From the NCBI GenBank assembly GCA_016235425.1, contig JACRLC010000059.1, forward strand, positions 1 through 64,000: a stretch of DNA of 64,000 bases, in the 5' to 3' direction. The notes beneath the pieces were generated by a model. The model was not told where the DNA came from. It searched no databases and was given only the letters and a program-made list of their open reading frames with translations. Made by a program: the position numbers and the translations under genes. Of this stretch, positions 4,870 through 64,000 are shown one piece after another; positions within the stretch are counted from its first letter, which is position 1; each line of letters opens with the position of its first letter. The DNA is from Chloroflexota bacterium. GTDB lineage: Bacteria; Chloroflexota; Anaerolineae; Anaerolineales; Villigracilaceae.

Positions 4870-5215
4870 GAACACACCTGATTCTGTATTGTGATAAATA
4901 TCTGGGTATATCATTCTGAGTAAGTCCACAGCGGAAAAGAGCGCTGTTCAAAGCGAAAGAAACAAGACCTCAGCCGCGAATTACACCCTGGCCTGGAGCC
5001 AGTGCAGGCGAATTTTCGCGAATTGGTTTTTTAAAAATCCGTGTTTATCCGCGAAATCCGTGGCAAAAGGGTTTTGAACTCCTTGTTTCTTGGTAGCGAA
5101 GCGAAGAATCTCAGATTACAGTGCAATTTTATGAAACTGGGATTCTTCGCTCCCGGAGTTTACCCTGAGCCTGTCGAAGGGGTCGCTCAGAATGACATGG
5201 TTGGAATAGAGAGGC
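4870..5215. repeat. Intergenic region with long dispersed repeat, copy A
   Basis: About 4918-5095 matches 63664-63931 at many positions. Shared blocks include AGCGAAAGAAACAAGACCTC, CGCGAATTGGTTTTT, ATCCGCGAAA and TTTTGAACTCCTTGTTT. From 5150 to 5200 there is an insertion of the CCTGAGCCTGTCGAAGG type in another repeated phrase. No gene is supported here. Confidence 0.7.
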
Positions 5216-9961: not shown

Positions 9962-9972
9962 GATTTCACCTT

Positions 9973-9998
9973 GTAGGGACAGGGCTTGCCCCTGTCCA
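9973..9998. repeat. REP hairpin upstream of RAYT
   Basis: GTAGGG followed by the palindrome GACAGGGCTTGCCCCTGTC. It forms the outer left arm of a cluster that also contains the 17-bp minisatellite and the hairpin at 10123-10147. Confidence 0.75.
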
Positions 9999-10099
9999 AT
10001 CCTTGCCCCTGTCCAATCCTTGCCCCTGTCCAATCCTTGCCCCTGTCCAATCCTTGCCCCTGTCCAATCCTTGCCCCTGTCCAATCCTTGCCCCTGTCC
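9986..10099. repeat. 17-bp minisatellite, about 6.7 perfect copies
   Basis: The unit TTGCCCCTGTCCAATCC is repeated six times exactly from 9986 to 10087, with a partial seventh copy to 10099. The first unit is half of the REP hairpin, so the array appears to have grown from a REP arm. The unit is not a multiple of three, and both strands stay open through it, which creates spurious long reading frames. Confidence 0.9.
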
Positions 10100-10122
10100 T
10101 TGAATTTTGAATACCAAAAAAT

Positions 10123-14466: not shown

Positions 14467-14543
14467 CCCTCATCCCCGACCCTTCTCCCAAAGGGAGAAG
14501 GGAGTCTGTTCCCTCTCCCTTCGGGAGAGGGCCAGGGTGAGGG
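14467..14543. repeat. CCCTC-type palindromic element, copy next to the thioesterase stop
   Basis: A double palindrome starts CCCTCATCCCCGACCCTTC, contains CTCCCAAAGGGAG and CTCCCTTCGGGAG, and ends GGTGAGGG. It abuts the stop codon of the gene at 14547. It is the same family as 23001-23072, 37676-37723, 41736-41811, 44797-44835 and 62817-62851. Confidence 0.85.
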
Positions 14544-22946: not shown

Positions 22947-23121
22947 AACCGTCCCGAAGGCTGCTGTCTGACTGCTAAATTACCTAACTGATGTTACGCA
23001 CCCTCACCCTAACCCTCTCCCAAAGGGAGAGGGGACTCCCTTCCCCTTCGGGGGAAGGGTTGGGGATGAGGGAGAGAAACTGCGTGAGGTGAGTTACCTT
23101 AAAAAAACCTTCGGGACGGTT
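22947..23121. repeat. CGTCCCGAAGG inverted pair with a CCCTC-type element nested inside
   Basis: AACCGTCCCGAAGG (22947-22960) and AACCTTCGGGACGGTT (23106-23121) form the outer arms. Between them, 23001-23072 is a complete CCCTC-type element with the inner palindromes CTCCCAAAGGGAG and TTCCCCTTCGGGGGAA. One family has inserted in the other. The region lies between the GT81 fusion and the hydroxyacid dehydrogenase. Confidence 0.85.
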
Positions 23122-26239: not shown

Positions 26240-27817
26240 TTATGGCGTCGCGCCTGAGTCGGGATCTATCATCAGGCTGGAAGTGTCCACGGCTTCGAAG
26301 TCATCTCCCGTTAACACATCGAGCAGGTGAAGCATATCGTTGTCCCAGCGCTCATCGGGCGTGCCGCTTACGTACCAGTCTGAGCCATTGTCAGCCAGGA
26401 TGATCCCGTAGGTTTTCATCGCTTGCAGGATTACCTGCATCTCAGGCGGGAAGGTTGAAATGTCATATGAAGCCTTCAAGCGGAAGATGGCGCCCATGGG
26501 CGGAACATTGGTCAGCGCGCCGGGGGAGCCGCTGGTGAGATGGCGGGCGGGCCAGATGTAACTGTTCGTGTTACTTGCGGTGAAGCGCAGGGCGTGATTT
26601 ATCACACCCGCTTCGATCTCATCGTAACGGGCGAGACCGGGCAGAATGGGCAGGCCTGCCGCGTCGGCGGAAGTCCAGCCTGCGGGGCGCAAGGCATTCG
26701 AGCCAAGATCCCAGATGGCGCCCGATCCGCCGCTCCACTGGCCGCCGCTGTAACTGGCATCGTATATTTCATACAGCGTGCAATCGTCCGTATCTATCGT
26801 CAGGATGTGATGATCCGAGCCGTATTCAATGTTTGGGCTGGCAGTGATCGGGTACGGTCCCGGGTCTGATTCGGTTGGATAATAAAAATCAACTGTATAG
26901 TTTGTAACCGCCGAGCCGGAGACCACATTGTATGGGATGCCGATTGGGCCGCCGTCCCAGGTGCCTGAACCGAAGTCCATGTGGAAGCCATCATAACGGC
27001 CGATGGAATTGATCCACTGGGTTGAACGCGCATGGACGGGGAGTGTGTCCACGGGCGTGTTCCAGATGTTATCTTGAGGATAGATGGCACAGCCCGCTAT
27101 GATGGGAACATTAATATCGATTGCGGGAGGCTGGTAGGTCGAACCATGTATGGCGCGCAGGATAAAAACCGCCATTTGCGCGCGGGTCACGTTTTGATCC
27201 GGGCAGAAGATCAAGGGGTTTTGTCCACAGCCGCCCGTGATGTTCTCGGCGTATAGTTGATTGATCCACAACCTGGCCCAATGATTGGACGAAACGTCCG
27301 AGAAAATATCGGTTGATGCAGGAGGAGTGTAAGACGGGCCGTGGATGGCGTGCAGGAGGAAGACAGCCATCTGGGCGCGGGTCACATTTTCTTCGGGGCA
27401 GAAACGCAGGGGATTTTCCCCACAGCCGCCCGTAAGACCTTCGTTGTAAAGTTGATTGATCCAGGCCCCAGCCCAATAAGTGGATGAAACGTCCGAGAAA
27501 ATATCAGTGGATGCAGGAGGAGTGTAAGAGGCTCCATGAATTGCACGCAGAATGAAGACGGCCATCTGGGCGCGGGTCACATCCTGCTCCGGGCAAAATT
27601 GCAGTGGATTTGTATTGCAGCCACCTGTTATGCCTTCACTATATAGTTGATTGATCCATGCAACAGCCCAATGATTCTGAGAGACGTCACGAAAAACATT
27701 GGGAACCGCACTGGGCCGCGCTTCACGCTCGGTTACTGCAATTAATGGTTTGCCGATCGGAGGAATGAGCACAAACATCAATACGGCAACAAGGGAAGTT
27801 AGATGGTATTTTTGCAT
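26240..27817 (-). CDS. Secreted SLH-domain protein with an unnamed conserved C-terminal domain
   Basis: Protein of about 525 aa. A signal peptide (LTSLVAVLMFVLIPPIG) is followed by three SLH modules of about 65 aa (FSDVSSTYWAGAWINQLY, GGCGENPLRFCPEENVTRAQMAVFLL). These usually anchor proteins to the cell-wall polymer. The C-terminal 280 residues (IYPQDNIWNTPVDTLPV, LRPAGWTSADAAGLPILPGL, YGIILADNGSDWYVSGTPDERW) form a domain I have met in secreted actinobacterial and chloroflexotal proteins but cannot name. The Asp/His/Trp pattern suggests an enzyme or a ligand-binding fold. The ATG at 27817 fits the signal peptide; ATGs upstream are possible. Confidence 0.8.
   Translation of the reverse strand: MQKYHLTSLVAVLMFVLIPPIGKPLIAVTEREARPSAVPNVFRDVSQNHWAVAWINQLYSEGITGGCNTNPLQFCPEQDVTRAQMAVFILRAIHGASYTPPASTDIFSDVSSTYWAGAWINQLYNEGLTGGCGENPLRFCPEENVTRAQMAVFLLHAIHGPSYTPPASTDIFSDVSSNHWARLWINQLYAENITGGCGQNPLIFCPDQNVTRAQMAVFILRAIHGSTYQPPAIDINVPIIAGCAIYPQDNIWNTPVDTLPVHARSTQWINSIGRYDGFHMDFGSGTWDGGPIGIPYNVVSGSAVTNYTVDFYYPTESDPGPYPITASPNIEYGSDHHILTIDTDDCTLYEIYDASYSGGQWSGGSGAIWDLGSNALRPAGWTSADAAGLPILPGLARYDEIEAGVINHALRFTASNTNSYIWPARHLTSGSPGALTNVPPMGAIFRLKASYDISTFPPEMQVILQAMKTYGIILADNGSDWYVSGTPDERWDNDMLHLLDVLTGDDFEAVDTSSLMIDPDSGATP
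27130..27690. repeat. Tandem 195-bp SLH coding repeats
   Basis: The SLH modules are repeated at DNA level with a period of 195 bp (65 codons). GAAACGTCCGAGAAAATATC occurs at 27291 and again at 27486, and the GATGCAGGAGGAGTGTAAG stretch repeats beside each. The similarity points to recent duplication. Confidence 0.75.
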
Positions 27818-36311: not shown

Positions 36312-37697
36312 TTATCCAAGTAATGCCTTTTCAAATTTCTCTTTTGCATTTTGCCATTCGCGCTCGGCTTCTTCGCGCAAGGCGCGGGCTTGGGCGCGGC
36401 GACGAGATAATTCGGAAGAAATCCTTTCCTGTATTTTTTCTGACGGAATGGGAATTAAGATTTTCTCTAATTCTGGCTCGGTAATGGCTGGATAATTTCC
36501 GCCACTGCTTCGTTGAAGCATTTGCTGTAAGCAGATTTGATTTCGCAGAACGCTCCAAAGGTAATCTTTGGAAATCCGTTTCTCTGTAATCTCTCGAATA
36601 ACAGAGAAACCAGTAGAAGCAACGCAACCATCCAAAGATTTATCCGCCTGTGCGATTGCGCCACGATGCGGGCGGGTGAGGCTAACCAGAATATCGCCAT
36701 CTCGTATCGCCATTCGAGCGCGGCTTGGAGCTTCGCTTACAAGTGTTTCAACGGCACTTATATTTCCTGTTGGAATATCTATACCGCTGATTTCAATATA
36801 CCTGAAAGTTTCAGCAGGTTCCTGCTCAGGCGACCAGATTTCATCCGAAAACTTTACGAGTTGACCAAGTTCCTTGCATGAAGTTTTTTGAATGACATCA
36901 ATCAACTTGCTGAATATTGGATGATGAAAATGTGGGTCAACACGCCCATCTTGAACGGTATCAAATCTAATTGCAAATGTCGCTCGCTTCTCTTCCTTCG
37001 GCAGTTTCAACCCCAACTGCTCCAGCACGAACGCATCCATGCCTTGAAGCAACCCCTCGGCCTGACTTAACTTCTCCGCCCGCGCCTTGCGTGCGGCTTC
37101 CATCTCCGCAACAAGGGCGCGCTGAATATCCAGCAGCGGGATGGGAATTTCAAACGTTTTGAACTCTTCCTTGTTGATATTCGGTTGTCCTGCTGGGCGT
37201 TGCATTGAACGAACCCAAGTTTTATATCTTTCTGTCTTAGTATAGTAATAAACAAATCCTGGCAAGGCTTTTTCTTTATCAAAGCGAAATCTTATGCAAT
37301 AACCTGCGAAGATTGACTTTCCAATTTCTTTTGTATAAATGAAGGTCTTGCCAACAGTCGCGCCGCTTCGAGCGAACAATACATCTCCATCTTCTAGAAG
37401 GAATCTATCATCTACATTTTCGGCAGTGACAAATTCGTGACCTTCTGGAATGCCTTCATCGTCAAAGTCTGTGATGCGAATATATCTCACATCATTGGAC
37501 GATGACATTGCCACTGCTTTTTCAGCGGCTCCATAATCAGGCTCTTGCACAACAAGGTTGCCAAGTTTTTCTTCATTGCCTGTTCCAAGTTTATTATGAC
37601 CACCATGATAAATAAACTTGGGGTCAATTCTTTCTATTACTTTGCCCCGCCGCACGGCGAAGCATTGCAATTCAGCCCTCACCCTGTCCTCTCCCAA
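36312..37697 (-). CDS. hsdS: Restriction-modification specificity subunit
   Basis: Type I-like S protein of up to 461 aa with two target-recognition domains separated by helical spacers (EMEAARKARAEKLSQAEGLL in the centre, ELSRRRAQARALREEAER at the end). LEDGDVLFARSGATVGKTF, IPIPLLDIQRALVAEM, IRDGDILVSLTRPHRGAIAQ and ILIPIPSEKIQERISSEL are typical. It sets the DNA sequence bound by the M subunit. The start is uncertain: a TTG at 37697 and a GTG five codons later both lie in a CCCTC-type palindromic element that fills the hsdM-hsdS junction. Conserved-looking sequence begins at RRGKVIERIDPKF. Confidence 0.88.
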   Translation of the reverse strand: MGEDRVRAELQCFAVRRGKVIERIDPKFIYHGGHNKLGTGNEEKLGNLVVQEPDYGAAEKAVAMSSSNDVRYIRITDFDDEGIPEGHEFVTAENVDDRFLLEDGDVLFARSGATVGKTFIYTKEIGKSIFAGYCIRFRFDKEKALPGFVYYYTKTERYKTWVRSMQRPAGQPNINKEEFKTFEIPIPLLDIQRALVAEMEAARKARAEKLSQAEGLLQGMDAFVLEQLGLKLPKEEKRATFAIRFDTVQDGRVDPHFHHPIFSKLIDVIQKTSCKELGQLVKFSDEIWSPEQEPAETFRYIEISGIDIPTGNISAVETLVSEAPSRARMAIRDGDILVSLTRPHRGAIAQADKSLDGCVASTGFSVIREITEKRISKDYLWSVLRNQICLQQMLQRSSGGNYPAITEPELEKILIPIPSEKIQERISSELSRRRAQARALREEAEREWQNAKEKFEKALLG

Positions 37698-37723
37698 AGG
37701 AAGAGGGGAATCAGCGCGAGGGC
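37676..37723. repeat. CCCTC-type palindromic element between hsdM and hsdS
   Basis: CCCTCACCCTGTCCTCTCCC, AAAGGAAGAGGGGAA and a terminal GAGGG. It fills the gap between the hsdM stop (37724-37726) and the coding part of hsdS, and its GGGAGAGGA on the minus strand could act as the ribosome binding site. Confidence 0.7.
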
Positions 37724-40099: not shown

Positions 40100-42961
40100 A
40101 TGAGCAAAAAACTGACCGGCAACGAAATCCGCCAAACCTTCATAGACTTCTTCGTCGAGCACGGACATACGGCTGTGCCGTCCATGTCGCTTGTGCCGGG
40201 CGGGGATGCGACCCTGCTGTTCACCAACTCGGGCATGGTGCAGTTCAAGGACGTGTTCCTCGGCACCGATAAGCGCCCCTACAAGCGCGCCGTGGACTCG
40301 CAGAAGTGTATGCGCGTGGCAGGCAAGCACAACGACCTCGAAGACGTGGGCCGCGACGATACGCATCACACCTTCTTTGAAATGCTCGGCAACTGGTCGT
40401 TTGGCGATTACTATAAAAAGGAAGCCATCGCCTGGTCGTGGCAGTTGCTCACCGACGTGTGGGGCTTGCCGAAGGACAAACTCTACGCCACTTGTTTTGA
40501 AGATGACAAGGGCGGCATCCCGCGCGATGACGAAGCCGGCGATATTTGGAAGGCGCAGCCCGGTTTCGATCCTTCGCATGTTTTGTTTTTCGGGCGCAAG
40601 GAAAACTTCTGGCAAATGGCGGAGTTCGGGCCGTGCGGGCCGTGCTCCGAAATTCACATTGACCTGGGCGAAGAGCGCGATAACCTGCGCGGCACAGACC
40701 ACGTCTGCGGCGTGAACGGCGAATGCACGCGCTACCTCGAACTCTGGAACAACGTCTTCATTCAATACAACCTCTTCGACGATGGCCGCCTCGAACCCCT
40801 CCCCGCCAAGCACGTCGATACGGGCATGGGCTTCGAGCGCATCGTCTCCGTTTTGCAGGGCGTGGACTCCAACTACAAGACCGACCTCTTCACAGGCTCG
40901 CTCGACGTTCTGCGCTCGCTTACGGGTCACACTGAAAAGGAAATGCTCGCCGATTTCACACCCTATCGCGTCATCTGCGACCACGCCCGTTCTGCCGCCT
41001 TCCTCATCGCCGACGGCGTTGTCCCCGGCAACGGCGGGCGCAACTACGTCACGCGCATGATCATCCGCCGCGCCGCCCGCTTCGGCACCAAGATTGGACT
41101 CCACGAACCGTTCCTCGCAAAAGTGGCCGAAGCCGTGATCGTGGAATATGGCGGCTTTTATCCTGAACTGGAAAAGAACAAGGCCGCGATTTTTGACAAT
41201 CTGACTCGAGAGGAAATCCGCTTCGCGCGGACGGTGGAAGCTGGTACCGCTCATTTGGAGAATCTACTCTCCAATCTCCAATCCTCCAATTCCCTGCTCT
41301 TGGACGGCCACCGCGCCTTTGACCTCTACGCCACGTACGGCCTGCCCTTTGAGATTTCCCGCGACATTGCCCGCGAACAAGGACTTGATATTGACGAAGC
41401 AGGCTTCAACGAAGCGAAAGAGAAACACAGCAAAGCCTCAGGCGGCGGCAAGGCCATGGGCAAGCTCGGCGGCGAAGACGCAGAGTTCTTCGCGCGGATC
41501 TTGAAAGACTTGCAATCGGGTAGGGGCGGGGTCACCGCGCCCCTGCTCGGCGAACATGGCGTCGAATATGACCCGTACACGAGTCCCAAAGTGGAAGGCG
41601 AAATTCTCGCGTTGATTGTCAACGGCGAATCAGTTGAATCTGCTTCTTTGGATGATGCCGTCGAAGTCATCCTGCCGAAGACCGGTTTCTACATCGAATC
41701 CGGCGGCCAGGTTTCAGATCAGGGTTACATTCGCGCCCTCATCCCCGGCCCTTCCCCCGTAGGGGGAAGGGAGTCCCCCTCTCCCTTTGGGAGAGGGGCT
41801 AGGGGTGAGGGGGGGTGGCAGATCGAAGTGACCGGCATGCGCCGCGCCTCAGCGGGAGTGATCGTCCACATCGGCGAAGTCATCTCCGGCCATCCCAAAG
41901 TAGGCGACAAAGCCATCGCCGAAGTGGACATGGTCCGCCGCCACGACATCATGCGCAACCACACAGCCACGCACTTGCTCCACGCCGCGCTGCACCAGGT
42001 TCTCGGTGACCATGCCCGTCAGGCAGGCTCGCTCGTTGCGCCGACTCACTTGCGCTTCGACTTCACCCACCCCGAAGCGATGACTCCCGAACAGATCGAG
42101 CGCGTCGAGAGGATCGTCAACGATGCAGCCGCCGCCGACATGGAAGTGTTCCCTCACCTCAAGGCGCGTGAAGACGCGATTGCCGAAGGCGCGATGGCCT
42201 TGTTTGGCGAGAAATACGGCGAGACCGTCCGCACGGTTACGATCTCCCCTGTCGGTTTTGATACACCAACGGATGTCGCGGTGATCCATCCCACAGCGGC
42301 AGTGGAACACGAGCAAAAATATTCCTACGAACTGTGCGGCGGCACACACCTTGACCGCACCTCCGATGTCGGCGCGTTCATCATCGTCAGCGAAGGTTCT
42401 GCCGCGGCAGGCATTCGCCGCATCGAAGCCGTCACAGGCCGCGGCGCGTACGACTTGATCGCGCGTCGTTTCAAAGCCGCTAAACGGGCCGCCGCATTGG
42501 TCTCCTCCACGCCTGAGGAACTGCCTTCAAAAGTGGAGGCTTTGCAGGACGAACTGGCCGACCTTCGCAGGCAGCTTGCCAGCCTGCGGCGGGACTCCGC
42601 GTTAGCCACCTTCAATCTCATGCTTGAAGATGTGGAAACTGTCAAGGATGTCATGGTGCTTGCCGTCGAGGTCCCGAACTGCGATGCGGACACTTTGCGT
42701 TCGCTGGCCGACAAATTCCGCGAGAGACATCCGAAGAGCGGCGTCTGTGTGCTTGTCTCCCCGGCGGATGGCAAATCCACCGTCATCGCCACCGTCACCG
42801 AGGATCTCGTCAAGCGCGGCTTGAAGGCAGGCGATATTATCCAGTCCATTGGCGGGAAAGGCGGCGGGCGGCCAAATCTTGCGCAAGGCAGTCTGCCCGA
42901 TGGAAATGTCAGTGAGGCATTGGGTAAAGTCGCAAGGGCAGTGGAAGAGAAGTTGAAGTAA
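40100..42961 (+). CDS. alaS: Alanyl-tRNA synthetase with an in-frame palindromic insertion
   Basis: Class II synthetase of 953 aa; the family is usually about 870-900 aa. Catalytic domain (1-245): IRQTFIDFFVEHGHTAVPS, TNSGMVQFKDVFLG, CMRVAGKHNDLEDVG, FEMLGNWSFGDYYKKEA. Editing domain: HTATHLLHAALHQ, and CGGTHLDRTSDVG with the Cys and His of the zinc site. A C-Ala region ends with GGGRPNLAQG. Residues about 545-571 (ALIPGPSPVGGRESPSPFGR onward) are encoded by a CCCTC-type element in a loop before the editing domain. A second odd stretch near residue 390 (NLLSNLQSSNSLL) comes from a CCAATCT-type tract. The enzyme charges tRNA-Ala and clears Ser/Gly errors. Confidence 0.95.
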   Translation: MSKKLTGNEIRQTFIDFFVEHGHTAVPSMSLVPGGDATLLFTNSGMVQFKDVFLGTDKRPYKRAVDSQKCMRVAGKHNDLEDVGRDDTHHTFFEMLGNWSFGDYYKKEAIAWSWQLLTDVWGLPKDKLYATCFEDDKGGIPRDDEAGDIWKAQPGFDPSHVLFFGRKENFWQMAEFGPCGPCSEIHIDLGEERDNLRGTDHVCGVNGECTRYLELWNNVFIQYNLFDDGRLEPLPAKHVDTGMGFERIVSVLQGVDSNYKTDLFTGSLDVLRSLTGHTEKEMLADFTPYRVICDHARSAAFLIADGVVPGNGGRNYVTRMIIRRAARFGTKIGLHEPFLAKVAEAVIVEYGGFYPELEKNKAAIFDNLTREEIRFARTVEAGTAHLENLLSNLQSSNSLLLDGHRAFDLYATYGLPFEISRDIAREQGLDIDEAGFNEAKEKHSKASGGGKAMGKLGGEDAEFFARILKDLQSGRGGVTAPLLGEHGVEYDPYTSPKVEGEILALIVNGESVESASLDDAVEVILPKTGFYIESGGQVSDQGYIRALIPGPSPVGGRESPSPFGRGARGEGGWQIEVTGMRRASAGVIVHIGEVISGHPKVGDKAIAEVDMVRRHDIMRNHTATHLLHAALHQVLGDHARQAGSLVAPTHLRFDFTHPEAMTPEQIERVERIVNDAAAADMEVFPHLKAREDAIAEGAMALFGEKYGETVRTVTISPVGFDTPTDVAVIHPTAAVEHEQKYSYELCGGTHLDRTSDVGAFIIVSEGSAAAGIRRIEAVTGRGAYDLIARRFKAAKRAAALVSSTPEELPSKVEALQDELADLRRQLASLRRDSALATFNLMLEDVETVKDVMVLAVEVPNCDADTLRSLADKFRERHPKSGVCVLVSPADGKSTVIATVTEDLVKRGLKAGDIIQSIGGKGGGRPNLAQGSLPDGNVSEALGKVARAVEEKLK
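41736..41811. repeat. CCCTC-type palindromic element inside alaS
   Basis: A full copy: CCCTCATCCCCGGCCCTTCC, CCCCGTAGGGGG, CTCCCTTTGGGAG and a terminal AGGGGTGAGGG. It is transcribed and translated within alaS without a stop or frameshift. Its two inner palindromes match those of the intergenic copies at 14467 and 23001. Confidence 0.9.
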
Positions 42962-43542: not shown

Positions 43543-43573
43543 GCGCCGATGTTTCATGTCGGCGCTATTTTTT
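43543..43573 (+). terminator. Terminator of the small membrane protein gene
   Basis: GCGCCGA and TCGGCGC form a stem with a nine-base loop, followed by TATTTTTT. It overlaps the stop codon of the convergent glycosidase gene. Confidence 0.75.
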
Positions 43574-45223
43574 GGGCATGGCATTCGCTTTTAATATCAT
43601 CCCACCCAGGCCATCCAAATAGATGGTGTTTTCTTTTCGTTCATCCCTTTGTGATAACTTGAAAATACACTCCTGGTTTTCAAATTGAAATTCTATTTCC
43701 TGTCCCGCAAAATTCAGCAAAACGAGAATGTTTTCGTCACCAAACTTTCTTGCATACCCAAGCACACCAGCAGGCAGGTTATCCATTAATTTCATGCTGC
43801 CTTCCTGCAACGGCCTTTTCTCCCTGCGGATTTTTAACAATGTGCGGATGGTATTTAACAAAGAATCCTTTGCATCGCTTTGCTTTTCTGCATTCACTCC
43901 TCTGTAATTTCCATGAAGTGGTAACCATGTTTTTTCTGCCGATGAAAACCCTGCATTCCTCGTCCCATCCCACTGCATCGGCGTGCGGACTTCATCACGG
44001 TTGATGGTCAGGCCCAAGATATCGAAAACAAATCTTGGCAGGAATTTGAATTTGTGCGGAATTGGGTCGAGCGCTGTGGCGAATGGGAAGCGCGCGTTCG
44101 TCATGCCGATCTCTTCGCCGTAGTACATGCACGGCACGCCGCGGACGGTCAACTGGAGCATGTGAAGCAGTTTTGCTTTTCGCGGGTCATTCCCAAGCCG
44201 ATGGATGCTCCTGCGCCTGTCGTGATTGCTGAAGACGTAAACAGGCATGAACGGATCGGGGAAATGCTTCTCAGTATTCCGTATCAATTCGCGAAAATAT
44301 TCGGCGGCGAATTTGAAACCCAGCATCTCAAAATCAAAGACAAGCGTGAGACCGTCGTTATTTTCTTTTCCCAAAAACTTGCGGATGATTTGCTTGTTTC
44401 CACTCACTTCTCCGAGCAGAAGCTTCTCGCCAAATTTGTCGCAGACATTTCTCAACTCCCTGGCGAAGGTAAAGCTTTCCGGCTGGTTCAACGTGTATTT
44501 TGCTTCCTGAAAGAATCCGGAAGGATCATCTTCCGTTGGCATGAGTTTGAAAGTGAACGGATTGTCGCGAAACTCCGCATCCTTGTAGATGACGTTGAAG
44601 ATATCCAGGCGAAAACCATCCACGCCTTTGCCAAGCCAAAAACGAACGATGTTGAGCATCGCCTCTTTCACTTCCGGGTTGCGGTAATTCAAATCGGGTT
44701 GGAATGGCAGGAAGCTGGCCCAGAAATACTGTCCGCGTTCCCTGGCATAGTGCCAGCCGCTTCCGCCCGTTATGCTCTGCCAGTTATTGGGTTTTACCCT
44801 CACCCCCGGCCCCTCTCCCATGGGGAGAGGGGAGCCGCGCCAGATGTACCAGTCTGCTTTGGGGCTGCCGCGTGAAGAACGCGATTCCTTGAACCACGGA
44901 TGTTCAATGGAAGTATGGTTCATCACCATGTCGAAGACGATCCGCATTCCGCGTTTGTGGACTTCGTCAATCAATTGCAGGGCGTCACACATCGTCCCGT
45001 ATTCGGGAGCGATGTCAGTGTAGTCTGATATATCGTAGCCGGTATCAGCTTGAGGGGAGGCAAAGAACGGGGAAATCCAAATCGTCTCGAATCCCAGTTC
45101 GTGGATGTAGTCCAGTTTTTGGATAATGCCTGGGATGTCCCCAATCCCATCTCCATTGCTATCGTAAAATGAGCGCGGGTAAATTTGGTAGATGGTTGTT
45201 TTGTGATGCCAGGGGATTGTCAT
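43565..45223 (-). CDS. GH13 alpha-glucosidase / oligo-1,6-glucosidase
   Basis: Cytoplasmic TIM-barrel enzyme of 552 aa that hydrolyses alpha-glucosidic bonds of malto- or isomalto-oligosaccharides. TIYQIYPRSFYDSNGDGIGD, FDMVMNHTS, the nucleophile in GVDGFRLDIFNVIYKD, acid/base Glu in LLLGEVSGNK and FSNHDRRR are all present, with a C-terminal beta domain. About residues 130-144 (RGSPLPMGEGPGVRV) are encoded by a CCCTC-type palindromic element inserted in frame between YIW and KPNNW. The start follows a run with no strong ribosome binding site. It may use oligosaccharides related to the 15-23 kb cluster, but the two are far apart. Confidence 0.93.
   Translation of the reverse strand: MTIPWHHKTTIYQIYPRSFYDSNGDGIGDIPGIIQKLDYIHELGFETIWISPFFASPQADTGYDISDYTDIAPEYGTMCDALQLIDEVHKRGMRIVFDMVMNHTSIEHPWFKESRSSRGSPKADWYIWRGSPLPMGEGPGVRVKPNNWQSITGGSGWHYARERGQYFWASFLPFQPDLNYRNPEVKEAMLNIVRFWLGKGVDGFRLDIFNVIYKDAEFRDNPFTFKLMPTEDDPSGFFQEAKYTLNQPESFTFARELRNVCDKFGEKLLLGEVSGNKQIIRKFLGKENNDGLTLVFDFEMLGFKFAAEYFRELIRNTEKHFPDPFMPVYVFSNHDRRRSIHRLGNDPRKAKLLHMLQLTVRGVPCMYYGEEIGMTNARFPFATALDPIPHKFKFLPRFVFDILGLTINRDEVRTPMQWDGTRNAGFSSAEKTWLPLHGNYRGVNAEKQSDAKDSLLNTIRTLLKIRREKRPLQEGSMKLMDNLPAGVLGYARKFGDENILVLLNFAGQEIEFQFENQECIFKLSQRDERKENTIYLDGLGGMILKANAMPKK
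44797..44835. repeat. CCCTC-type palindromic element inside the alpha-glucosidase gene
   Basis: ACCCTCACCCCCGGCCCCTC followed by CTCCCATGGGGAG and AGGGG. It is a half-length copy (one inner palindrome) and is translated on the minus strand. Confidence 0.85.
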
Positions 45224-62816: not shown

Positions 62817-62851
62817 CCCCTCTCCTGCGGGAGAGGGGCCAGGGGTGAGGG
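62817..62851. repeat. CCCTC-type palindromic element between fabG and the asp23 gene
   Basis: CCCCTCTCCTGCGGGAGAGG, then GGCCAGGGGTGAGGG, which ends at the fabG stop codon. It is a half-length copy with one inner palindrome. Confidence 0.85.
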
Positions 62852-63610: not shown

Positions 63611-63944
63611 GATTCTGCTCCTCGTTGTGAATTATACACCGTCAGTGTTGCGTGTTTCGTGTTGAGTACATCTACAGCGGAAAAGGGTGCTGGTCAAAGC
63701 GAAAGAAACAAGACCTCAGCCGCGAATTACGCGAATCCTTCGACAAGGTTTCCCTGGCCCGAACACCAGGACGGGCGATAAACTCAACGCGGCGGCTCAA
63801 CCCAACGGCTCAGGACAGGTTTTCGCGAATTGGTTTTTAAAAATCCGCGCTCATCCGCGAAACCTGTCCTGAGCTTGTCGAAGGATCCGTGGCAAAAGAA
63901 TTTTGAACTCCTTGTTTTTTAGCAGCAATGGGTAGAACCCAGGA
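63611..63944. repeat. Intergenic region with long dispersed repeat, copy B
   Basis: 63664-63931 matches 4918-5095, but carries extra sequence: a stretch around CCTTCGACAAGG (63738), and ACCTGTCCTGAGCTTGTCGA plus AGG inserted cleanly between ATCCGCGAA and ATCCGTGG (63863-63885). No gene is supported. Confidence 0.7.
63631..63636 (-). promoter_or_regulatory. fabG -10 hexamer
   Basis: A minus-strand TATAAT lies 20 nt upstream of the fabG ATG, with the ribosome binding site between them. Confidence 0.45.
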
Positions 63945-64000
63945 TTATTGCTTTGGTTTCAAGCCCAGACCCAGCGCAATCCCGCCTCCCAGCGCAAGGA
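63945..64000 (-). CDS. Possible C-terminal end of a membrane protein, cut by the window edge
   Basis: On the minus strand the frame reads LALGGGIALGLGLKPKQ and stops at 63945-63947. The hydrophobic Gly/Leu pattern is like the end of a membrane protein, but only 18 codons are present and no family can be named. Confidence 0.35.
   Translation of the reverse strand, partial: LALGGGIALGLGLKPKQ

What the first reader, a model, noticed from the sequence alone, without database searches (positions are those of the whole stretch)
41736..41811. Palindromic repeat inserted in frame in alaS
A complete 76-bp CCCTC-type element, otherwise intergenic at 14467 and 23001, sits inside the alanyl-tRNA synthetase gene. 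It is read through as about 27 residues rich in Pro, Gly, Ser and Arg, placed in a loop between SDQGYI and WQIEVTGMRR. AlaRS is normally essential, so the protein must tolerate it. This resembles the palindromic elements that invade protein genes in Rickettsia, but I know of no description in Chloroflexota.
Basis: partly seen in the sequence, partly recalled or inferred. Interest (0 to 1): 0.85.

Follow-up and report, generated by a model that had tools for sequence, protein, structure and literature searches.

The report
Palindromic mobile repeat inside alanyl-tRNA synthetase
A short palindromic DNA repeat has landed in frame in a turn of an essential enzyme gene, one of many such landings in this bacterial genome and its relatives, and the same type of repeat often lies beside a small nuclease gene in many bacteria, which makes that nuclease a testable candidate for the enzyme that moves it.

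Summary
A 76-nt element (41736-41811) lies in frame in alaS and adds residues 546-571 where many relatives have a tight turn. It is an inverted pair of 'triplex-motif' (TM) repeats, a known class with no mobilising enzyme reported in the defining paper. It is not a lone oddity: the same AlaRS loop holds palindromic inserts of several families in relatives, and this genome has TMs in frame in leuS, uvrA, metH, a P-type ATPase, addA- and addB-like genes and others. In metH one loop exists compact, with TMs alone, and as TM-nuclease-TM, all in frame. The nuclease is DUF559, with the fold of Vsr and of homing endonuclease I-Bth0305I. DUF559 genes from several phyla have TMs beside them (51 of 80 loci, against 1 of 149 windows further out). 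In E. coli K-12, DUF559 is ycjD and a TM lies about 170 bp downstream. Best reading: the alaS insert is a non-autonomous copy of a DUF559-linked mobile palindrome, kept because it landed stop-free in a tolerant loop. Insertion and tolerance are well supported; that DUF559 does the moving is inferred. Palindromes inside coding genes were already known in Rickettsia and, as REPs, in other bacteria.

The parts
40100..42961 (+). alaS, alanyl-tRNA synthetase ORF (953 aa) with the insert
41736..41811 (.). full element: inverted pair of TM repeats, 76 nt, read as residues 546-571; outer arms CCCTCATCCC.. / ..GGGGTGAGGG pair (one wobble)
41736..41770 (-). left TM unit (hairpin plus mirrored third strand), variant sequence
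41777..41811 (+). right TM unit CCCTCTCCC-TTT-GGGAGAGGG-GCTAG-GGGTGAGGG
44797..44831 (-). single TM unit in frame in the alpha-amylase ORF 43565-45223 (-), read as GSPLPMGEGPGVR, residues 130-142
14467..14543. another TM pair of the same family (left unit found by the scan, right end read from the sequence)
23001..23072 (.). another TM pair of the same family
62818..62851 (+). single TM unit
37673..37712 (+). degenerate half-unit (68% to the reference copy)

Best explanation
The insert is a non-autonomous copy of a mobile palindromic element, an inverted pair of triplex-motif (TM) repeats. It replaced a short turn of AlaRS (in the editing part; that name is recalled). It survives because the copy is stop-free in one frame, keeps the reading frame and sits where extra residues are tolerated. 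SHOWN: repeat identity and high copy number; in-frame insertion; a short turn in relatives and solved structures; repeated occupation of this loop by several palindrome families; in-frame copies in other conserved genes; a close association of TM repeats with DUF559 genes in several phyla; in-frame TM-DUF559-TM insertions in metH, with compact and TM-only states at the same site. INFERRED: that DUF559, with the fold of Vsr and of homing endonuclease I-Bth0305I, cuts DNA and so spreads TM pairs (in trans) and TM-DUF559-TM units (in cis); that selection removes frame-breaking insertions and keeps those in loops. How a cut would lead to insertion (single-strand hairpin transfer, repair or gene conversion) is unknown.
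For: Own genome: 40 places. 29 of 77 distinct copies examined lie in frames open 40 aa or more on both sides; profile matches confirm conserved hosts for the ten ORFs scanned: leuS, uvrA, addA-like, addB-like, SNF2-type, glycosyltransferase, two xanthine-dehydrogenase-type subunits, cofD, P-type ATPase, plus metH. AlaRS: 10 of 55 (own included) have a palindromic loop insert by my reading, several unrelated in sequence; a strict detector finds a TM in 6 of 55 AlaRS coding sequences, all 6 at this loop; at least 7 changes of state on a tree of 52 rows. metH site in 30 loci read: TM-DUF559-TM in 7, TM units only in 3, compact in 10. DUF559 loci: TM within 300 bp in 23 of 39 Chloroflexota and 28 of 41 others; windows 690-1000 bp away 0 of 72 and 1 of 77. 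Controls: gaps adjoining DUF559 50 of 113, other intergenic gaps 0 of 34, AlaRS flanks 0 of 44, Y1_Tnp flanks 0 of 14. The 28 genomes (of 61) with 10 or more pattern hits all have a DUF559 match; none of the 13 without one exceeds 8. Fold: 3HRL Z 15.7, I-Bth0305I Z 12.1, Vsr Z 9.9.
Against: G025 has 361 pattern hits, but its only DUF559 match is a weak domain (E 2.4e-12) in a 1503-aa ORF, helicase-like by reading, on a contig where no TM was detected; it still counts as DUF559-positive. With the tree taken into account the copy-number link is concordant but rests on too few independent pairs for significance. 29 of 80 DUF559 loci show no TM by the strict detector; that detector was also negative within 300 bp of both E. 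coli DUF559 loci first read, where the published TMeco consensus is found. No target duplication was noticed and no transposition was observed. DUF559 could be a passenger beside pre-existing TMs. Caulobacter VsrA, a DUF559 protein, is reported as responsible for an SOS response in a subset of cells lacking a solitary methylase (PMC12907096, passages), which points to other roles.
Confidence: 0.6

Rival explanations
1. TM repeats spread by another process (replication slippage, template switching, gene conversion or an unknown enzyme). DUF559 genes are passengers that insert beside or between TM repeats, as some insertion sequences target REPs.
For: G025 is rich in TMs without a TM-linked DUF559. 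In 14 of 41 non-Chloroflexota loci there is a TM on both sides, as could be expected if a gene dropped between two units of a pair. An insertion sequence inside REPs is known (ISPpu9, PMC8450116, abstract start seen in the listing).
Against: In metH of G000 and G031 a complete TM pair stands on each side of DUF559, and in G034 a complete and a nearly complete one, not one split pair. None of the 13 genomes without DUF559 has more than 8 pattern hits. DUF559 genes with quite different palindrome families share the hairpin plus mirror layout.
Confidence: 0.27
2. The element is a REP-type repeat mobilised by a RAYT/Y1 HUH transposase.
For: Y1_Tnp matches occur in 57 of 61 genomes, 4 in this one. 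Spearman correlation with pattern hits is 0.34.
Against: 0 of 14 flanks of 7 Y1_Tnp loci carry a TM, a small sample. The copies shown lack a terminal GTAG or CGTC tag. The correlation is weaker than for DUF559 (0.49).
Confidence: 0.08
3. The insert has been taken into service: its hairpin regulates alaS translation, or the Pro/Gly/Arg-rich peptide has a role in AlaRS.
For: The same loop is occupied repeatedly. The insert folds very stably (-60.8 kcal/mol).
Against: 28 of 55 AlaRS have the short turn. Unrelated palindromes occupy the same place and some look eroded. The element also sits in many unrelated proteins.
Confidence: 0.04
4. Assembly or frame artefact.
For: The genome is a draft of 109 contigs with many repeats, where chimeras can arise.
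Against: Other genomes carry related inserts at the same codons, flanked by diverged but homologous sequence.
Confidence: 0.01

Closest known systems
G/C-rich intrastrand triplex motif (TM, TMeco; earlier PIT motif), Holder et al. 2015, PMC4666352 (abstract, two parts of the text, three sections and passages seen)
   Same: Same hairpin plus mirrored third G-rich strand; occurs singly and as inverted pairs; many copies per genome. Sibling copies here fit the published consensus exactly, e.g. CCCTCTCCC-TTC-GGGAGAGGG-TTA-GGGTGAGGG.
   Different: The paper found the 23 copies of E. coli MG1655 always intergenic and reports no linked mobility gene. Here copies lie in frame in conserved genes and beside DUF559. 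The window's right unit has a 5-nt instead of a 3-nt second spacer.
Rickettsia palindromic elements (RPE), as described in the review PMC10969869 (passages)
   Same: Palindromic repeats inserted in frame in unrelated genes and translated.
   Different: About 150 bp in that review, against 72-81 here; no sequence comparison was made; no nuclease-bearing form is mentioned in the passages seen.
Intragenic GTAG/CGTC REPs, PMC3733652 (passages)
   Same: REPs and REP dimers inside coding genes: uvrA, UvrD/recBCD, tRNA synthetases and others, a similar choice of host genes; different REPs at about the same site in two recB genes.
   Different: Those carry a GTAG or CGTC tag. TMs are untagged and no link to Y1_Tnp was seen here (small sample).
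EDxHD homing endonucleases (I-Bth0305I, 3R3P) and Vsr
   Same: Fold and sequence similarity; PMC9403480 assigns a DUF559 gene to the EDxHD family (passage).
   Different: No intron or intein was looked for or noticed. In metH and uvrA the domain lies in the open frame of the host protein, with TM-type palindromes at its sides.

Membership tests
Triplex-motif (TM) repeats | CCCTCNCCC N3-6 GGGNGAGGG N3 GGGNGAGGG | tested here: met
   Sibling copies match exactly. The window's right unit matches the three stems but with a 5-nt second spacer, and its left unit has CCTTCCCCC, so the window's own copy is a variant.
Triplex-motif (TM) repeats | High copy number, single or inverted pairs | tested here: met
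   40 places in the own genome; pairs and singles in the window
Triplex-motif (TM) repeats | Triplex formation in vitro | not testable with these tools
   Needs CD or NMR
Rickettsia palindromic elements | In-frame insertion in many unrelated protein genes | tested here: met
Rickettsia palindromic elements | Sequence relationship to an RPE family | not tested
   No RPE sequence was compared
REP (RAYT-linked) | GTAG or CGTC tag at one end | tested here: not met
   Complete copies read CCCTCA..TGAGGG at the ends
REP (RAYT-linked) | Repeats bracket a Y1/RAYT gene | tested here: inconclusive
   0 of 14 flanks at 7 Y1_Tnp loci; too small a sample to exclude it
MITE | Terminal inverted repeats | tested here: met
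   CCCTCA / TGAGGG exact, with further pairs inward
MITE | Target-site duplication | tested here: inconclusive
   None noticed by eye in the flanks printed; no formal test
EDxHD/Vsr-fold endonuclease (for the linked DUF559) | Fold | tested here: met
   Z 12.1 to 3R3P, 9.9 to 1CW0
EDxHD/Vsr-fold endonuclease (for the linked DUF559) | Active-site residues equivalent to those of I-Bth0305I | tested here: inconclusive
   E60, D62, H66 and D73 are invariant in 18 DUF559 sequences; their equivalence in the 3R3P structure was not checked
Homing endonuclease | Cuts an empty allele and is copied into it | not testable with these tools
   Needs a cleavage and homing assay

The most novel reading that the evidence does not exclude
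[quoted passage not shown] coli, are the ends and the non-autonomous offspring of a pan-bacterial mobile element whose enzyme is the Vsr-fold nuclease DUF559 (YcjD in E. coli). It is a third kind of palindrome-mobilising system beside RAYT/REP and transposase/MITE. Because the ends are often stop-free, it can insert whole in frame, as TM-DUF559-TM, into housekeeping enzymes such as methionine synthase and UvrA, where it would be translated with the host protein and need no splicing.
Probability: 0.5. Interest if true: 0.92.

Novelty: new variant of a known kind. Interest (0 to 1): 0.8.

Why it matters
[quoted passage not shown] A nuclease found beside them in several phyla, and present in E. 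coli K-12, makes the question of who moves them testable in a laboratory strain. The repeated use of one AlaRS turn and one MetH loop shows how mobile palindromes can supply new protein segments, and in MetH and UvrA a whole nuclease domain, to essential enzymes.

Tried and rejected
RAYT/Y1 as mobiliser: tested by flanks and counts, not favoured, on a small flank sample. The copy-number correlation as proof: weakened by relatedness and by G025; presence of DUF559 means any match at E <= 0.001, weak domains included. Listing all own-genome copies: the place list stops after 100 rows, so 77 distinct copies were examined, namely the best 30 by similarity plus those on the contigs listed first; the genic share is a sample. 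A long open frame alone does not show a conserved gene: of the 29 several look like antisense or 5'-leader frames, and only those with profile matches are claimed. L137 and L141 were set aside by reading as ordinary helicase-nuclease fusions. For L132, L136, L139, L142, L144 and L112 the script returned no qualifying ORF, so they support nothing; L112 has TM pattern hits. Of the 30 metH loci, 7 are TM-DUF559-TM, 3 TM only by my reading (the pair in G006 is not flagged by the strict detector), 2 show other palindromes, 10 are compact, and 8 (G003, G009, G013, G017, G027, G028, G033, G036) have other longer or intermediate sequence that I did not analyse. G042 was counted as an eighth metH-DUF559 genome, though no right-hand TM is evident there. 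Rows dropped before the AlaRS tree: L151 and L157 (longest ORF on the wrong strand), L158, L174, L175 (partial), leaving 52 of 57. The state 'palindromic' on that tree was assigned by eye; G006, G008, G015 and G035 were called possibly eroded and counted as absent, though the strict detector later found a TM in G035. For DUF559 loci near contig ends the match end was approximated. The relatives' figure of 18 of 23 uses only loci with full flanks, 23 of 30. The control set rang for DUF559 in 2 of 14 genomes, its E. coli not among them, although ycjD is annotated as DUF559 in K-12; I did not resolve this. A clean empty site in E. coli was sought and not found: the two ycjD-less strains read carry an efflux gene set after sapF. 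A fold of AlaRS itself was not run; by the tool's description relatives from the genome search would not be accepted. Chance matches to toxin B chains at E 0.27-0.87 were ignored.

Literature searches behind the novelty statements. They were judged from titles and abstract starts except for the papers opened (PMC4666352, PMC2869309, PMC1189080, PMC10969869, PMC12907096, PMC9403480, PMC3943268, PMC3733652), in a library that lacks most subscription papers.
Full report
1. The observation. The window carries alaS at 40100-42961 (+), 953 aa. Positions 41736-41811 hold a 76-nt palindromic element read in frame as residues 546-571. Its outer arms pair, and inside them lie two C-rich/G-rich hairpins. 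On each strand a unit reads as a hairpin followed by a third, mirrored G-rich strand: CCCTCTCCC-TTT-GGGAGAGGG-GCTAG-GGGTGAGGG on the plus strand, and a variant unit on the minus strand. In the own genome (5.0 Mb, 109 contigs) a similarity search gave 40 places with E <= 7.8e-16, itself included, with 40 of 160 candidates scored. The half-unit pattern gave 301 hits, overlaps counted, against 1 for the reversed control.

2. Where it sits. AlaRS was found in 57 of 61 genomes, own included. Of the 57 segments extracted, two came from the wrong strand, leaving 55. Of these, 28 have a 14-17-residue segment between the flanking strands, 12 have 20-22, and 15 have 25 or more (the window has 38). In the structures 2ZTG and 3WQY the two aligned stretches end at residue 552 and resume at 554, so the insert replaces a tight turn; the Pfam tRNA_SAD match lies downstream at 740-776. 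Ten of the 55 carry a palindromic insert by my reading (G000, G001, G005, G017, G025, G028, G036, G042, G043, G056), not all of one family. A strict detector (8-nt pyrimidine arm, exact complement, mirrored third strand with at most one mismatch) finds a TM in 6 of 55 AlaRS coding sequences, all 6 at this loop. On a tree of 52 AlaRS built without the loop columns, presence of an insert changes at least 7 times; such counts cannot tell gain from loss.

3. The same in other genes. Of 77 distinct copies examined in the own genome, 29 lie in frames open at least 40 aa on both sides. Profile searches of ten such ORFs confirm conserved hosts: leucyl-tRNA synthetase (TIGR00396, 850.9 bits, with the TM inside the Pfam editing-domain match), UvrA, an AddA-like helicase, an AddB-like protein, a SNF2-type protein, a glycosyltransferase, two xanthine-dehydrogenase-type subunits, CofD and a heavy-metal P-type ATPase. 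In the window a single TM unit is read in frame in an alpha-amylase-family ORF. Among 29 complete pairs (72-81 nt), 73 of 174 pair-frame combinations are stop-free, about 2.5 of 6 frames per pair, so read-through needs no special adaptation.

4. The nuclease. One host, methionine synthase of the own genome, holds a TM pair, a DUF559 domain (PF04480, 113.4 bits) and a second TM pair in one uninterrupted frame. At this metH site, among 30 loci read, 7 have TM-DUF559-TM (G000, G005, G011, G030, G031, G032, G034); 3 have TM units only (a pair in G006, one unit in G029, three tandem units in G026); G007 and G024 show other palindromes; 10 are compact; 8 were not classed. DUF559 also lies inside UvrA (G047, G060) and in ORFs with PIG-L, phosphotransferase, UvrD-like, type ISP and methyltransferase domains, several with palindrome-like peptides beside it.

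5. DUF559 and TMs in general. A simple hairpin score reached the threshold in 30 of 39 and 17 of 41 loci, against 1 of 34 and 2 of 36 distal controls. With the strict TM detector, 23 of 39 and 28 of 41 have a TM within 300 bp, on both sides in 4 and 14; windows 690-1000 bp away gave 0 of 72 and 1 of 77 (Fisher p about 7e-29 for 51/80 against 1/149). To allow for TMs being intergenic anyway: gaps adjoining DUF559 50 of 113, other intergenic gaps 0 of 34; AlaRS flanks 0 of 44; Y1_Tnp flanks 0 of 14; DUF559 loci of relatives with full flanks 18 of 23. In E. coli K-12 MG1655 the DUF559 gene is ycjD, between sapF and fabI, and a TM fitting the TMeco form lies about 170 bp downstream; strain KE47 has a further TM about 10 bp after the DUF559 match. 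The strict detector was negative at the two E. coli loci it was run on. ycjD was found in 3365 of 5426 E. coli genomes.

6. What DUF559 is. A model from 18 sequences (mean pLDDT 88.7) matches 3HRL (Z 15.7), the homing endonuclease I-Bth0305I 3R3P (Z 12.1) and Vsr 1CW0 (Z 9.9); sequence profiles agree for 3HRL and 3R3P. E60, D62, H66 and D73 are invariant across the 18.

7. Copy numbers. The 28 genomes (of 61) with 10 or more pattern hits all have a DUF559 match; the 13 without one have at most 8 (Fisher p 9e-5). The 8 genomes with DUF559 in metH have 24-372 hits against a median of 5 elsewhere. Pairs chosen to be independent on the AlaRS tree are concordant (on average 2.4 the same way, 0 the other, of 6), too few for significance. 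G025, with 361 hits, has only a weak DUF559-like domain in a helicase-like ORF, which counts against present-day dependence.

8. Mechanism. Best reading: TM pairs are non-autonomous relatives of TM-DUF559-TM units; a DUF559 cut starts insertion; frame-breaking copies are lost; copies in turns and linkers of conserved enzymes persist. Insertion and persistence are supported by the data above; the action of DUF559 is inferred from association, composite structure and fold. The chief rival is that DUF559 is a passenger on TMs that spread otherwise.

9. What is known. Palindromes inside genes: Rickettsia elements (review PMC10969869, passages) and REPs of the GTAG and CGTC classes in uvrA, UvrD/recBCD, tRNA synthetases and others (PMC3733652, passages). 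TM repeats: PMC4666352 (parts and sections seen) reports more than 260 genomes, the E. coli MG1655 copies always intergenic, and no linked mobility genes. YcjD was treated as a PD-(D/E)XK member whose profile finds Vsr (PMC1189080, passages). Searches for DUF559 with palindromic repeats, for DUF559, for ycjD, for Vsr with REPs, and for in-frame palindromes in Chloroflexi gave listings in which, by titles and abstract starts, I saw nothing on a TM-DUF559 link; the library lacks most subscription papers. I therefore rate the finding as a new variant of a known kind, with a possibly new mobile-element system behind it.

Noticed in passing
window 44797-44831: A second in-frame copy in the window: a single TM unit read as GSPLPMGEGPGVR inside an alpha-amylase-family ORF.
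   Followed up: yes
L335 (own genome C36:740-3360): A TM is also in frame in leuS, inside the Pfam editing-domain match, so two tRNA synthetases are hit in one genome.
   Followed up: partly
L347 and L346 (own genome C47): Neighbouring addA-like and addB-like genes carry at least three TM units in frame between them; recombination and repair genes recur among hosts, as in the published REP cases.
   Followed up: partly
L138 and L143 (G047, G060): UvrA with an in-frame DUF559 domain bracketed by palindrome-like peptides of another family.
   Followed up: partly
L264 (G026 metH): Three tandem TM units in frame at the metH site, suggesting local amplification.
   Followed up: no
window 9968-10120: Tandem repeat of a 17-bp unit (CTTGCCCCTGTCCAATC).
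   Followed up: no
window 27122-27706: Three tandem 195-bp repeats (76% and 66% to the first).
   Followed up: no
window 4903-5118 and 63649-63947: Dispersed direct repeats shared near both ends of the window (82 nt at 85%, 63 nt at 79%, and shorter).
   Followed up: no
L354 against L355/L356 (E. coli, after sapF): Two strains without ycjD carry an efflux gene set after sapF instead; a replacement, not a clean empty site.
   Followed up: partly
L357 (E. coli ETEC6, sapF-fabI): ycjD is annotated as split by an IS1 element in this strain.
   Followed up: no
L132 (G025): Genome with 361 TM pattern hits but no TM-linked DUF559 found; a useful counter-example.
   Followed up: partly
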